From NCBI GenBank assembly GCA_963924555.1, contig OZ004590.1, positions 2,395,001 to 2,459,000 of the forward strand: 64,000 nucleotides of DNA, read 5' to 3'. The DNA comes from Crambe crambe. Lineage: Eukaryota > Porifera > Demospongiae > Poecilosclerida > Crambeidae. Shown here one piece after another: positions 1,240 to 62,100 of this stretch (within the stretch, counting starts at the first letter, position 1; each line of letters starts with the position of its first letter). A model generated the notes under the pieces. It searched no databases, was not told the origin of the DNA, and saw only the letters and a list, made by a program, of their open reading frames with translations. The position numbers and the translations under genes are program-made.

Positions 1240-4200
1240 CTAATAGTTGATCAATGCTATATAAGTTCTGCGTGTTACATGCCAACCTTCACTTCCTCCA
1301 ACCACCATCATTTCTCTATCATTGATCATTGCACTGGTGCATAGACTTCGTGGATGTGGTAAATCCCCAACTTTCAGCCACTTCCCAGTTTCAGGTTGGT
1401 AGAGTTGAATGGTAGTCAAGTCCTTACCATCCTTCTCACCACCCAATGCAAGCAGAGACCCACTGATGGAGAGTGGAATAGACCCGATAGCGTCTAGTTC
1501 AGATATCTCCTTCCAGATCTGCCTGTCTCTCTCGCTAGAACTCTTTGGGTTGAGCAGAGCTTGTAGAGACACGCTGAATACCTTCTTAGTACGACCACTT
1601 ATAAACCCACCCATAAAGTAATACATGTCACCCACTATGGCTGCCTTCATCTCAGTCCATCCCACTGGCAGTGGAGGTGCAGTAGACCATTGTTTATTGC
1701 TGGTGTTCATGACCTCAACAGATGTTAAATCGTCCCCCTTTTCAGAATACCCTCCAGCCACTACTAGCCATTCTTTGTATGTTACAGCAGAGCAGGAAGA
1801 ACGTGCTGTGGGCATATCAGGATAGGGATGCACCCATTCCTTGCTTGCAGTTCTCCATGCACCCAGTACCTTGCTCTTAGCTTCACCCACTTCCACTCCA
1901 CCCACTAACACTAGTTGATTGTCGATCACTGTCATACCAAAGTAGTATGTTTTATATGGTGGCAATGTGGCCCATTCCCCCGAGTGAATGTCGTATACCA
2001 TGACTTTGTAATCATAATCACCAATAGCAAGCCCACCCCCGACATATACCATCCCTTGCATCACTACAGCCTGCACATTGCCTCCCATCTTAAATGGCAT
2101 ATTTGGACCACGCCTCCACTTTAACTGGAGTGGGAATTTGAGTTTGAGGGGTACCTGTGGAATGAGTTGTATAATTACTGATGATGACCACCACTTAGTG
2201 TCTGACCTTTCCTGTCCCCTCCTGTTGCTGTTCCTGCCACCTCCTCAGTTCCTCTGTTAGTCTGCTGATCTCAGCATCTTTAGTTTGCAGTTCCTCCCTC
2301 AGTCGAGACTCTCTTAACTCCAAGTCTGCACGTAACTCCTACAGGTACATATTGAATACAGGGTTAGTAATGGTAGTATAGCTGACACTTTAGAATGTTA
2401 TTATTGAGTGTTTCCCTTTCAGATAGTCCAGCAAATGACCTAAGCATTAAGACCTTTCTTTCTACGTATGTTAATGAGATTTCTTCTACAAGGGACTGCT
2501 ACTTGAATAAGTTCATACATTTTCTGAAGACTTATGAGAGCACACACACACAAATAGAAACAACTAAAAGTGATGGCTGAAATGTCATTGTTCAAAGAAT
2601 ATATATCAAGAAGAAAAAGTAACCCGTTACTGTCTAGCTTTCTCAGAAAACATGGCTAGCAAGATGCTCTTTTGCTTTATGGTGCTAGTTTATAACCCTT
2701 ACCTTATACACATGACTAGTGTTAGTAACGGTGATGACCCTTACCTTATACACATGACTAGTGTTAGTAACGGTGATAACCCTTACCTTATACACATAAC
2801 TAGTGTTAGTAACGGTGATGACCCTTACCTTATACACATAACTAGTGTTTGTAACGGTGATGACCCTTACCTTATACACATAACTAGTGTTAGTAACGGT
2901 GATGACCCTTACCTTATACACATAACTAGTGTTAGTAAAGGTGATGACCCTTACCTTATATACATGACTAGCACCAGCGATGGTAATGACTACTTGTACC
3001 TTATACACAGTGCCAGCAATGGTGATAACCCATACACTTTTTTTTGTCTACTTGGTATGTGGTTACCCTTGTGATTTTATTTACATGTTGGGGATTTCCC
3101 TTACTCCGGAATCAGCTGAGTCAACTCTCACGTATCATGTAGCTACCTGTCATGTGATAGTTTGTTGCTGGTCCTTACTTGAAGTTGCTGGTCCTTTAGT
3201 TGAAGTTGTCCATCTTGGAGTTGAAGTTGTTCATCTTTGAGTTGAAGTTGTCCATCTCGGAGTTGAAGTTGTTCATCCTTGAGTTGAAGTTGTCCATCTT
3301 TTTCTTCCACTGCAATATGTAGCTGCTCTACTTGAGCATTTTTATCCTCCATCTCATTCTGGAGCTGCCGTATTTGAGCATTTTTCTCTCTCTCTTGTGC
3401 CTACAAATAGAGTGATTTACATTGAGTCCTATATATCAATATGCTTGTACATATGTCCATCACTGTTCAAAGGTCAATTATATGTAAGTACGTGTTAAAA
3501 TCAACTACCCTTCTTCTAATGACATTTTTTTTCTACTTGGAATATGGTTACCTTGGTGATAAACACACACACACACACACGTCCTAACTTGAAATAGCTG
3601 GTCCTTTAGTTGAAGTTGTCCTTGTAGTTCTCTTGTCATGTCTTCCAATTCAGTTTGATACCTCTCCTGTTAAAGAGTGAGCATATATAGCTATGAACAA
3701 AGAAAACTTTTACATGATTAAAATTCAACCTGTTGTTGAGTCAGTTCCTCTATCCTTCTGTCCTTCATCTTCATTTCTTTGGCCAGTCGTAATCTTCCAT
3801 AGTCTAACTTGGCAACATTTTCACCATACTCTCCTTCCACCTCCACCTTCATTCTCTGAAGTCTGTCCAGCACCTCATCAGTGGCTGGCCTTTGAGTTGG
3901 AGCATTATGCAGACACTGCTTGACCAGCTGGACTAGAGCAGGGTGCCCCACATTGCATGAAACTTGGTGGTCCAATATTGCTATGTACTCCCCACGACGT
4001 TCAAGTTCAGATCTTGCATGGATTAGTTGAGGATTATCAGGATTCACGAAAGTGCTCTGGAGAAGGTCACCTGGGTATTTCTATGTAGGTACAAGTTTAT
4101 ACATGACATATAGTTAATTGGCATGTGGCACTGACTTGTATCAAAGTGTAGAGGGCAAGGTGGCCAAAGGAGAAGATGTCAAGGGATGGTCCATAGCGGT

Positions 4201-59100: not shown

Positions 59101-62100
59101 GAGATTCCTTCTACAATGGGCTGCTGCTTGCATAATTAAGCTCATACATAATGGTAAGTGGCTTTTCTGAAAGCAAAATTGTTCCAAAAAAAATTACATA
59201 GCTTGCTACCTAGAAGAAATGTAACGCCATCATATAGAAGTGCTATTATGCCATCTTCTTATATGTATTCCTCAGCCGTTACCATGGCTAGCGAGACACT
59301 TTTTTACTTTACATATGGCTTATTATTGATGACCCTTACCGTATGCATCATAAGTAGTTTCAGCAACATGCATGACCCTTATCTTATTCACTGGACTCTT
59401 GACACAAGGAACAATGCTGGTTCCCTAATAGTTTGTTGCTGATCCTTACTTGAATTTGGGAGTCCTTTAGTTGAAGTTGTCCATCTTTGAATTGAAGTTT
59501 TCCATGTTGGAGTCGAAGTTGTCTATGTTGGAGTCGAAGTTGTCTATGTTGGAGTTGAAGTTGTTTATCTTTGATTTGAATTTGTTCATCCTTTAGTTCA
59601 AGTTGTCCATCTTGGAGTTGAAGTTGTCCATCTTTTTCTTCCACTGCAATATGTAGCTGCTCTACTTGAGCAATCTTATCCTCCATCTCATTCTGGAGCT
59701 GCCGTATTTGAGTATTTTTACTAGAAATTTCCCTGTTCTTCCTATCAATTTCAGCTTGATTCTCTCTTTCTTGTGCCTGTATATGCATTGAAGCTTATGA
59801 ATCTATTATAGTAGTTTTATCTCCTATACTACTAAGGAAAAATGCTGATATTTCACTGTTGCTGACCTATGAGAATGCGATTATTTTTCTTCACTGCTAA
59901 GTGTGTGACAAAAATGCTTATCATAGTAAATTTAATTTTGACCTTTGACCTTGGTCTACTCTGACATTGTCTAATTTTTGGGCAGTAAAAACAACCAGGC
60001 AATTCCTATAGCCTATGCCATGTTAGCATGTTGTGTATGCTCCTCCCCACCATCAAAGAGCTGAGGCACTGTACTAACAAAATAGCAAACAAGCCTGTAT
60101 GTGGGCATGTTGACTGAATGCCAGTAATTGTATGCATTAGCAAAACCATACCATAGCATGGACAAAAGTGAAATTTGTGGAAAATATCACTTGTGTTTAT
60201 AGCTAGTGAAAATGACACTCTGCTACACCTCGTGTAATTTTTATTTTCACTACAACTTTGTGATATTTATCCAAATTACTTGTAGTTCTCTTGTCATGTC
60301 TTCCAGTTCAGTTTGATACCTCTCCTGTAGAAGAGTGAGTGATAATTTTATATGAACAAAGAAAAAGTTTACATATTATTCAACCTGTTGCTGAGTCAGT
60401 TCCTCTATCCTTCTGTCCTTCATCTTCATTTCTTTGGCGAGTAGTAATCTTCCATAGTCTAACTTGGCAATATTTTCACCATACTCTCCTTCCACCTCCA
60501 CCTTCATTCTCTGAAGTCTGTCCAGCACCTCATGAGTGGCTGGCCTTTCAACTGGAGCATTATGCAGACACTGCTTGACCAGCTGGACTAGAGCAGGGTG
60601 CTCCATGCCAATTCTAATTTCCAATATTTCAATATACTCCCCACGACGTTCAAGTTCAGATCTTGCATGGATTTGTTGAGTATTGTCAGGATTCACGAAA
60701 GTGCTCTGGAGAAGGTCACCTGGGTATTTCTATGTAAGTACTAGTTGATACATGATGTATAATTAATTGGCATGTGGCACTGACTTGTATCAAAGTGTAG
60801 AGGGCAAGATGGCCAAAGGAGAAGATGTCAAGAGATGGTCCGTAGCGGTGAGTCTCTCCCAGAGCTTCTGGTGGCATGTACACTAGCGTCCCTGGCAATT
60901 TAGAGAGTGTCCTGGCCATCTGACTTGGTCTCATGTCAACGATGCGGGAGTTACCCATGTCAGTGATCTTTGCCACAAAAGAGGAGGTGAGGAGGACGTT
61001 CTTGGCAGTTAAGTCTCTGTGGATGACTGGAAGCGTTCTCTTGTGAAGATAGACCAGTCCACTGGCCACATCCTCTAGGACAGAGCGCTTGAGGGAGAGA
61101 GGGAGACCAGGCATGTGCTCCAACAGATCATCCAGGCTTGTCTCCAGTCGTTCCATCACTAGTAGTGGCAGTCGAGTCCCTGGGAGGAAGCACAGACCCA
61201 GGAAAAGGGTGATGTTAGGGTGACGGAGGCTGGACATCAACTGACACTCCTGCTCATACTTTTGGACTAACTCAGGTACTCCTTCATTGCCAGCATCTAT
61301 GAGAGCTTCATGGATCTTCTTTCCAGCACAGATGAGATGCTGATACTTTACCTGTTGAAAAGTAGATCTCACTAACATGCATTCAAATCTATTTCACTAT
61401 ACTGACCTCTTCCACTGAACCATAAGAACCTGTTCCCAGGACTTTACCAGTTGGAGTGACATCAGTCAGCACAAACTGCTGTAGGTGACGGTTGTTCCTG
61501 AAGGCCTGAGCCATACCATGTCTCCTAGCCATGATCACAACAAACCGATTTTTAAAAGTGGGTGTGTCATATAATGTGATTCGTAGTTATGACATCATCA
61601 CAGTCATGAATAATGAGATCAATAAGAGTTGACTGTAGTTGGACCAGTTCAATTCCTGTATGTTAGGATGTAAAACTACAGTGGAACCTCTGAATAACGG
61701 ACAATCTGGGGCCACTGAAATTGTCCTTTACAGAGAGATGTTCTCTATTCAGAGGTCATTTAATACACAAAGTACTATGGTGGGACAGCAACAAGTGTCA
61801 ATTTGGAGTGTCCATTATTCGGAGGTTCCACTATAATCCCTTTTGAGCTTTCCCTTAATTACATGCTCTTTGATAATCTGGCTACTTCATTTTGCAGTAG
61901 CAAGTGCTGAACATGAAAAAAAAAAAGAGCCATCCTTGTTACATTTGTTATTAGCGTAATAGTATGTTCCTCTGTAGAAGACATTTCTTGCCCCCTTCTT
62001 CTCCTTCTAGTCACACTTTCTGTATAGTCCAGAATTCAGACTGGAGTGATAGGACTATACAGCTACTGTCCTTATGGAATGCCATTCTTAACTCTTAACT

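What the first reader, a model, noticed from the sequence alone, without database searches (positions are those of the whole stretch)
1240..61532. Five kinase-Kelch paralogues with near-constant kinase and variable Kelch loops
Reading K1-K5 side by side, exon 2 (kinase) differs at only a few residues. The Kelch exon differs mainly right after each GG (blade 1: [42 protein letters not shown]; last blade: [40 protein letters not shown]) and in turns such as PTARxSCS, PHPRxxCTS and PYKTxxFGM. In Keap1/KLHL-type propellers these loops form the ligand-binding face. The pattern suggests a recognition repertoire (self/non-self, pathogen or partner sensing) with a shared signalling output.
Basis: partly seen in the sequence, partly recalled or inferred. 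Interest (0 to 1): 0.9.

Follow-up and report, generated by a model that had tools for sequence, protein, structure and literature searches.

The report
Sponge kinases with hypervariable Kelch sensors
A sponge-like genome carries dozens of copies of a gene whose enzyme half is held constant while the ligand-binding face of its propeller half is driven to change, as expected of a family of molecular sensors, possibly immune, that share one signal.

Summary
The window holds five intact genes (764-817 aa) for TKL-like kinase, coiled coil and six-bladed Kelch propeller. They belong to a 14-gene tandem array; 62 close kinase-Kelch loci, some partial, lie on six contigs.

Synonymous divergence is alike in both exons (array: kinase 0.099, Kelch 0.111), but dN/dS is 0.11 in the kinase and 0.89 in the Kelch exon. 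On the face that binds ligands in Keap1 and KLHL20 (BC and DA loops) it is 1.91 or 1.53, depending on loop labels, with bootstrap intervals above 1; opposite-face loops 0.36-0.39, strands 0.48-0.53. All 15 codons with posterior above 0.95 lie in BC/DA loops; none of 189 in the kinase.

In Halichondria panicea 18 of the 30 most variable Kelch sites are the same (3.0 expected), at least one in each of the 12 loops.

Kelch exons often sit in 3' flanks differing by about 1% and look mosaic: gene conversion probably reshuffles them.

Most likely a cytosolic recognition repertoire with a shared kinase output. An immune role is likely but unproven; ligands are unknown.

The parts
1240..4887 (-). K1, kinase-coiled coil-Kelch gene, 7 exons (4887-4756, 4702-4136, 4080-3730, 3666-3589, 3400-3179, 2338-2207, 2154-1240), 798 aa
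   Evidence: Pfam on the spliced product (kinase 31-307, Kelch and propeller matches between 506 and 783)
13338..16818 (-). K2, same architecture, 7 exons (16818-16687, 16633-16067, 16011-15667, 15607-15563, 15306-15127, 14454-14326, 14273-13338), 777 aa
28075..31571 (-). K3, same architecture, 7 exons (31571-31440, 31384-30818, 30762-30412, 30352-30308, 30051-29851, 29177-29046, 28992-28075), 781 aa
43587..46977 (-). K4, same architecture, 7 exons (46977-46846, 46790-46224, 46168-45824, 45764-45720, 45474-45316, 44685-44554, 44501-43587), 764 aa
57905..61532 (-). K5, same architecture, 7 exons (61532-61407, 61351-60785, 60729-60385, 60324-60280, 59776-59450, 59004-58873, 58816-57905), 817 aa
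4136..4702 (-). K1 kinase exon 2 (the near-constant part); the same exon in K2-K5 is at 16067-16633, 30818-31384, 46224-46790, 60785-61351
   Evidence: dN/dS 0.12 for K1-K5, 0.11 for the 14-gene array; no codon with posterior above 0.9 for positive selection
1240..2154 (-). K1 Kelch exon 7, six-bladed propeller (AlphaFold2 mean pLDDT 93.2, pTM 0.91); the same exon in K2-K5 is at 13338-14273, 28075-28992, 43587-44501, 57905-58816
   Evidence: model; Foldseek and VIA matches to NS1-BP, LZTR1, KLHL20, Keap1
1270..2082 (-). hypervariable ring of K1: Kelch-exon residues 25, 71, 119, 168, 224, 271 (one per DA loop) and 42/44, 87/93, 136/141/142, 188, 240, 288/291/295 (BC loops); codons from 2082-2080 (residue 25) to 1272-1270 (residue 295)
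   Evidence: sites among the 30 most variable both here and in Halichondria panicea; window coordinates
3179..3730 (-). K1 coiled-coil stretch: after exon 3, exons 4 and 5 (introns between), with a repeated 7-residue unit ([14 protein letters not shown]); exon 5 is 74, 60, 67, 53 and 109 aa in K1-K5
   Evidence: translation; coiled coil inferred from the 7-residue period, no predictor run

Best explanation
A germline-diversified cytosolic recognition repertoire. Each protein binds a ligand in the central pocket of its Kelch propeller, through a hypervariable ring made by all six BC and all six DA loops. Binding, or loss of binding, changes oligomerisation through the coiled coil and so turns on a near-invariant TKL-type kinase (IRAK/RIPK/TNNI3K-like) that feeds one shared pathway. 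The ligands are most likely molecules that themselves evolve fast (effectors or other proteins of microbes), which makes this an intracellular innate immune sensor family of sponges, comparable in logic to NLRs. The repertoire grows by tandem duplication of a 12-15.5 kb unit and is reshuffled by gene conversion among exons. Shown: architecture, array, intact catalytic motifs, dN/dS above 1 on the binding face of the C13 array with constraint elsewhere, the same hypervariable sites in another sponge, mosaic exons. Inferred: ligand binding at that face, activation mechanism, conversion as the cause of the mosaics, immune role.
For: Selection: kinase dN/dS 0.11 against 1.91 or 1.53 in BC+DA loops, at nearly equal dS of the two exons. 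Codon level: 15 of 15 sites at PP>0.95 and 23 of 26 at PP>0.9 on the face, 0 of 189 in the kinase; 31 of 33 with trees per half. Structure: model pLDDT 93.2; best solved matches include the Kelch domains of NS1-BP, LZTR1, KLHL20 and Keap1 besides designed propellers; BC/DA loops are the binding surface in Keap1 and KLHL20 (passages). Replication: C12, C5 and C18 clusters give face values of 1.19, 1.22 and 3.69 against 0.39, 0.61 and 0.78 for strands. Halichondria panicea: kinase identity 0.976, strands 0.908, face 0.753; 18 of 30 top variable sites shared, 3.0 expected, all 18 in BC/DA loops. Eight further groups of paralogues that share a contig length (19 pairs): kinase identity 0.92-0.99, face 0.67-0.82, strands above face in 19 of 19, AB+CD above face in 18 of 19. 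Kinase: catalytic motifs kept in 15 of 15; nearest solved kinases mostly TKL-type. Immune hint: a Halichondria protein with the same kinase type carries an AIG1/IIGP-type GTPase and no reported Kelch, on a contig of the same length as one with kinase-Kelch paralogues.
Against: No ligand, expression, phosphorylation or knock-out data. The immune hint is not repeated in this genome: 96 AIG1 matches, none inside the C13 array. The face interval lies above 1 only in the C13 array and in the two usable C18 genes; in C12 (0.82-1.82) and C5 (0.77-1.93) it spans 1. DA loops alone do not reach it: 1.64 (0.85-3.57) with motif labels, 1.37 (0.80-2.56) with DSSP labels. Diversifying selection also fits reproductive or intragenomic conflict, or specialisation of paralogues. 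The DFG motif reads DMG, so kinase activity is probable, not certain. The top kinase hits by sequence include a plant lectin-type kinase, EGFR and TYK2, so the group is not settled.
Confidence: 0.55

Rival explanations
1. Partner or substrate specialisation without conflict: each paralogue docks a different endogenous substrate or scaffold through its Kelch face, and a short burst of positive selection followed each duplication.
For: Kelch domains of Keap1 and KLHL20 are endogenous substrate adaptors (passages); the kinase could phosphorylate what the Kelch binds; paralogues carry clearly different faces.
Against: Face pN stays high even between pairs whose 3' flanks differ by less than 2% (45 of 91 pairs, mean flank 0.9%, face pN 0.150). 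The same sites are variable in two sponges, which looks like continuing rather than episodic change.
Confidence: 0.2
2. Allorecognition or gamete compatibility: the variable faces distinguish self from other sponge individuals.
For: Variable binding face, large tandem arrays and shared output, as in known allorecognition complexes (recalled).
Against: No signal peptide or separate membrane segment is apparent in the five models: highest 19-residue hydropathy near the N-terminus 0.39; highest anywhere 1.76 (K3, K5), inside the kinase (simple scan). Contact with another individual's surface would then need a further receptor.
Confidence: 0.12
3. Relaxed constraint: the loops are simply free to drift, and the kinase is constrained.
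For: Loops of propellers tolerate change; the whole Kelch exon has dN/dS 0.89, and in C12 and C5 the face interval includes 1.
Against: Drift should not exceed 1: BC+DA in the C13 array 1.91 (1.28-3.06) and 1.53 (1.07-2.26); opposite-face loops stay at 0.36-0.39; the same single sites vary in another sponge, and the correlation drops from 0.37 to 0.18-0.27 at a shift of one column and to about 0 at five.
Confidence: 0.07
4. Artefact: constancy of the kinase is only gene conversion, and loop variation only misalignment or recombination.
For: Mosaicism is real: in both exons none of 300 permutations reaches the observed runs statistic, and the nearest relative often changes from blade to blade.
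Against: Kinase and Kelch have nearly the same dS, so conversion alone does not make the kinase constant. Pooled pairwise ratios use no tree; separate trees for halves give the same picture. The six best-supported codons (224, 188, 70, 240, 271, 288) have no gap in their columns, though indels lie close to 188 and 288.
Confidence: 0.06

Closest known systems
BTB-Kelch (KLHL) proteins: KEAP1, KLHL20, NS1-BP
   Same: Six-bladed Kelch propeller; ligand face formed by BC and DA loops; among the best solved matches by sequence and fold.
   Different: No BTB/BACK domain in K1; a kinase and coiled coil instead; these loops differ between tandem paralogues under positive selection.
TKL kinases of innate immunity and stress: IRAK4, RIPK2, TNNI3K (also plant CTR1, roco4)
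   Same: Among the nearest solved kinases by sequence; catalytic motifs kept.
   Different: No death, CARD or ankyrin family reported for K1; recognition domain is a Kelch propeller; DMG in place of DFG.
NLR-type intracellular receptors and plant receptor kinases: constant signalling part, diversified repeat domain, tandem clusters (recalled)
   Same: Works like them in logic: tandem arrays, positive selection on the recognition surface, conserved signalling domain.
   Different: No NACHT/NB-ARC, LRR or TIR family reported for K1; the scaffold for diversity is a propeller.
Annotated sponge proteins: Halichondria panicea 'traf2 and NCK-interacting protein kinase-like' (P0001 and others), Geodia barretti, and Em0016g262a (taken for Ephydatia muelleri from its prefix, recalled)
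   Same: Same domains, 31-43% identity over 81-99% of K1 for P0001, P0024, P0035, P0036 and P0042; Halichondria paralogues show the same constant/variable split.
   Different: Named by the sources after other kinases; no paper found that describes them as a family.

Membership tests
BTB-Kelch (KLHL) | six Kelch repeats folding as a six-bladed propeller | tested here: met
BTB-Kelch (KLHL) | BTB (and BACK) domain before the Kelch repeats | tested here: not met
   Pfam scan of the full K1 product at E up to 0.1 shows kinase, Kelch/propeller families and one sub-threshold MpPF1 match; none in Halichondria P0001 at E up to 0.001
TKL-group protein kinase | kinase domain with Lys, HRD Asp/Asn, DxG Asp and PPE motif | tested here: met
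   Pkinase 2.4e-33 over K1 31-305; motifs in 15 of 15 kinases of C13
TKL-group protein kinase | placement in the TKL group by phylogeny | tested here: inconclusive
   top PDB sequence hits are a plant lectin-type kinase, EGFR, TNNI3K, CTR1, roco4, TYK2, IRAK4; no kinome tree built
NLR immune receptor | NACHT/NB-ARC ATPase domain | tested here: not met
   no such match in K1 at E up to 0.1
NLR immune receptor | tandem clusters with positive selection on the recognition surface (works-like criterion) | tested here: met
   (C13 array)
Receptor kinase (membrane) | signal peptide and transmembrane helix | tested here: inconclusive
   Kyte-Doolittle scan of five models: N-terminal maximum 0.27-0.39; overall maximum 1.43-1.76, which lies inside the kinase (K1, K3-K5) or at residue 493 (K2); no dedicated predictor run
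Innate immune sensor | response to microbes or binding of microbial ligand | not testable with these tools
   no expression or binding data

The most novel reading that the evidence does not exclude
Sponges have their own antibody-like logic in the germline: a large repertoire of cytosolic receptors whose recognition surface is a six-fold ring of 12 hypervariable propeller loops, kept variable by diversifying selection and by exon-to-exon gene conversion, and wired to one near-invariant TKL kinase. It would be the first recognition repertoire built on a Kelch propeller that I know of, found in more than one sponge and so probably old.
Probability: 0.45. Interest if true: 0.95.

Novelty: new variant of a known kind. 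Interest (0 to 1): 0.86.

Why it matters
How animals without adaptive immunity tell many microbes apart, and what sponges use for allorecognition, are open questions. Here is a concrete, testable repertoire with a defined variable surface (18 shared hypervariable positions) and a defined output domain. It would add the Kelch propeller to the natural scaffolds on which variable recognition surfaces are built (immunoglobulin folds, leucine-rich repeats, lectin-type folds; recalled). The ring geometry gives clear sites to swap between paralogues.

Tried and rejected
Kinase constancy as mere recent duplication or conversion: rejected, because dS is nearly the same as in the Kelch exon. Loop variation as relaxed constraint: dN/dS above 1 with intervals above 1 in the C13 array. 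One-tree artefact: separate trees for the two halves keep 31 of 33 sites on the face. Label choice: my first loop labels were drawn by motif with the alignment in view; labels from DSSP of the model lower the estimate from 1.91 to 1.53 but keep it above 1. Co-location of AIG1-type GTPases with the C13 array: not found, all 96 matches lie elsewhere. Rfam: no family at gathering score in the window. Phage relatives of the kinase: three records, 25-30% identity. Literature: searches listed no paper that I could recognise as describing a sponge kinase-Kelch family (listings only, apart from the passages named here). PMC6993872 names a Kelch motif in a figure legend (one passage); PMC11000336 lists Kelch propellers and kinase domains as separate sponge families with changing expression (one passage). 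PMC4931237 names Keap1 pocket residues (passages); I did not map them one by one onto K1.

Rows dropped or not read. At least four partial Kelch matches of 57-79% identity and three kinase matches of 71-80% were left out of the lists paired. C18: 3 of 5 genes lost because the extraction began at a position with a stop at codon 2. Three single genes (C9_8086, C13_5746, C13_2187) were aligned but not counted. Halichondria: 21 proteins taken (P0001-P0021, the best hits); 4 of 210 pairs with Kelch identity of 0.99 or more dropped; 18 of 21 kept as unique; further isoforms or near-copies may remain. Pairs are not independent. The eight contig groups were picked by me from the 120 listed hits (contigs known only by equal length); the Geodia group was not tested. 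C13_1490 (Kelch only) and C13_5741 are in the codon-site runs (16 Kelch sequences with both; 15 kinase sequences with C13_5741) but not in the 14-gene pooled counts.

Limits of the scripts. The codon-site program is my own FUBAR-like script (fixed kappa 2.5, fixed grids), not checked against HyPhy or PAML. The tree-length factor ended on the edge of its grid in the one-tree Kelch run (0.7) and in the kinase run (2.0), and the global omega on its upper edge (1.3) in the first-half run and on its lower edge (0.1) in the kinase run. Script one search stopped with an error after the K1-K5 figures; one search did the rest. In one search the HRD test used a wrong pattern and printed False; one search has the right one. 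In K1-K4 introns 3 and 4 differ by 19-21%, so not all introns are near-identical; and Kelch pS does correlate with 3' flank divergence (rho 0.49).
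Full report
What is there. The window is G000:C13:2,395,001-2,459,000 of a 143-Mb genome in 119 contigs. The named relatives among the 120 listed protein hits (of 330) are from Halichondria panicea and Geodia barretti, plus Em0016g262a, which I take for Ephydatia muelleri from its prefix, so I treat the genome as that of a sponge. Five genes on the - strand (K1-K5, 1240-61532) each have seven exons in phase 0 with GT-AG introns and no internal stop, giving 798, 777, 781, 764 and 817 aa. Exons 1-3 give a protein kinase domain (Pkinase 2.4e-33 over K1 31-305), exons 4-6 a charged stretch with, in exon 5, a repeated 7-residue unit that I read as coiled coil, exon 7 a Kelch domain. 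No BTB, NACHT, death, TIR or LRR family was reported for K1 at E up to 0.1. A hydropathy scan shows no N-terminal signal-like segment (maximum 0.27-0.39) and its overall maxima (1.43-1.76) lie within the kinase or, for K2, at residue 493.

The five are a slice of a family. With the K5 Kelch exon as query the genome gives 128 matches; I counted 67 as the close group (47% identity or more; two of the 67 are partial, and at least four other partial matches were left out). With the K5 kinase exon 151 matches were found, 67 of them in a close group at 76% or more (lower bounds by the tool's own statement). I could pair 62 Kelch and kinase exons into loci: 18 on C13, 17 on C12, 17 on C9, 5 on C18, 4 on C5, 1 on C10; some of these are partial or show stops in the match. 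The main array on C13 has 14 genes, 2,234,955-2,456,393, on one strand; a more distant gene lies at 2,187,713. In the window the copies are 12.1, 14.7, 15.5 and 14.3 kb apart (3' ends), and the units also carry exons of an EML-type WD40 gene on the other strand.

Kinase constant, Kelch variable: selection, not history. Pooled Nei-Gojobori counts over the 14 genes give kinase exon 2 dS 0.099 and dN 0.011 (ratio 0.11), Kelch exon dS 0.111 and dN 0.099 (0.89); for K1-K5 alone the ratios are 0.12 and 0.83. Nearly equal dS means that both exons have accumulated silent change alike, so the kinase is constant because replacements are removed. All 15 C13 kinases examined keep CAGKK, the alpha-C Glu, [11 protein letters not shown] and PPE. 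By sequence the nearest solved kinases are a plant lectin-type kinase, EGFR, TNNI3K, CTR1, roco4, TYK2 and IRAK4, which suggests but does not settle the TKL group.

Codon by codon. A FUBAR-like grid run of my own on 16 Kelch sequences finds 15 codons with posterior above 0.95 for dN>dS, all 15 in BC or DA loops (hypergeometric 1.7e-6), and 23 of 26 above 0.90; on 15 kinase sequences none of 189, while 173 have posterior above 0.9 for purifying selection. Because the exons look recombined, I repeated it with separate trees for the two halves: 31 of 33 above 0.95 on the face, p 7.7e-11. Strong sites include the residue after the double glycine of a blade (87, 136, 240, 288) and DA-loop residues (70, 119, 224, 270, 271).

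Replication inside the genome. With the motif labels carried over by alignment, the C12 cluster (8 genes used) gives face 1.19 (0.82-1.82), AB+CD 0.25, strands 0.39; C5 (4 genes) 1.22 (0.77-1.93), 0.38, 0.61; C18 (2 of 5 genes usable) 3.69 (1.74-15.7), 0.23, 0.78. So the contrast between face and the rest is general in these sets, but only the C13 array and the C18 pair put the interval above 1.

Replication in other sponges. Relatives with kinase and Kelch occur in Halichondria, Geodia, Em0016g262a and many unnamed contigs. Over 206 of 210 pairs of 21 Halichondria proteins mean identity is 0.976 in the kinase, 0.908 in strands, 0.910 in AB+CD and 0.753 on the face; in the C13 array (91 pairs) 0.978, 0.917, 0.866 and 0.724. 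Site variability correlates between the two species (rho 0.37 over 297 sites; 0.56 over 124 face sites); a shift of one column lowers 0.37 to 0.18-0.27, five columns to about 0. Of the 30 most variable sites 18 are the same, 3.0 expected. All 18 lie in BC or DA loops; each of the six DA loops holds exactly one and each BC loop at least one. These are protein-level counts; I had no Halichondria DNA, so no dN/dS there. In eight groups of paralogues that share a contig length (19 pairs) kinase identity is 0.92-0.99 and face identity 0.67-0.82; strands exceed face in 19 of 19, AB+CD in 18 of 19.

How diversity arises. K1-K4 are nearly identical around the variable exon (intron 5 1.2%, intron 6 0.0%, 1.2 kb of 3' flank 1.4%), though introns 3 and 4 differ by 19-21%; the Kelch exon differs by 8.4% at all sites and 0.097 at silent sites. 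In 45 of 91 pairs of the array the 3' flank differs by under 2% (mean 0.9%), while face pN is 0.150 and Kelch pS 0.082. Face pN does not correlate with flank divergence (rho 0.06, p 0.56), nor does kinase pS (0.01), but Kelch pS does (0.49). Over the whole array introns and flanks are often far more diverged than the exons. In both exons none of 300 permutations reaches the observed runs statistic, and the nearest relative of most genes changes from blade to blade. K3 and a gene 113 kb away have almost the same Kelch exon but differ in intron 5 (33%) and kinase silent sites (7.7%). The simplest reading is frequent gene conversion between exons of different copies, which moves variants among paralogues, with selection keeping face variants and removing kinase variants. 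Other mixtures of duplication age and conversion are possible.

Mechanism and function. Shown: domain order, purifying selection on the kinase, positive selection on the canonical ligand face in the C13 array, sharing of variable sites between sponges. Inferred: each protein is a cytosolic sensor that binds a ligand in the Kelch pocket and reports through coiled-coil oligomerisation and a common kinase. For an immune role speak the pattern itself, the IRAK/RIPK-like kinase, and a Halichondria protein (P0028) in which the same kinase type is followed by an AIG1/IIGP-type GTPase, with no Kelch reported, on a contig of the same length (7,592,338) as that of P0001 and other kinase-Kelch paralogues. 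Against it: no expression or binding data, and none of the 96 AIG1 matches in this genome is in the array.

Novelty. Diversified receptor families with a constant output are a known kind (recalled); a Kelch propeller as the diversified part, paired with a kinase in a repertoire, I found nowhere in the searches made (the library holds open-licence papers only). Hence 'new variant of a known kind', with high interest.

Noticed in passing
window 11631-12110, 23652-24134, 40615-41184 (+); by eye also 21066-26198 and 41843-42322: Units of the array also carry exons of an EML-type gene (HELP motif, WD40 propellers; Pfam) on the opposite strand. By eye, the stretch between K2 and K3 holds a nearly whole copy, and next to the 3' ends of K2 and K4 lies a separate stretch with only its first part.
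   Followed up: partly
window 2692-3035 (K1 intron 5) and the same place in K2-K4: A tandem repeat of 42 bases (14 codons, PYLIHMTSVSNGDD on the + strand, open in frame) with different copy numbers; it makes length differences between otherwise near-identical introns.
   Followed up: no
window 3179-3400 and exon 5 of K2-K5: The number of 7-residue units differs between paralogues (exon 5 53-109 aa), so the spacer length between kinase and Kelch varies too.
   Followed up: no
G000 C5:9124084-9131853: Three more distant pairs of kinase and Kelch matches lie in open frames of 698, 692 and 764 aa each, so kinase-Kelch genes without an intron between the domains seem to exist as well.
   Followed up: no
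G000 C13:2391644-2391928: A lone 3' piece of a Kelch exon (79% to K5, residues 217-311) just before the window, perhaps a remnant of unequal exchange.
   Followed up: no
P0028, P0054, P0063, P0111, P0113: Relatives of the kinase occur joined to AIG1-type GTPases (P0028, P0054, P0063) or to ankyrin repeats (P0111, P0113) instead of Kelch: one output type, several sensor modules.
   Followed up: partly
G000 C6:8404914-8675682: Nineteen further Kelch matches (28-31% identity), all on one strand, in a tandem array of their own; whether they belong to kinase genes was not tested.
   Followed up: no
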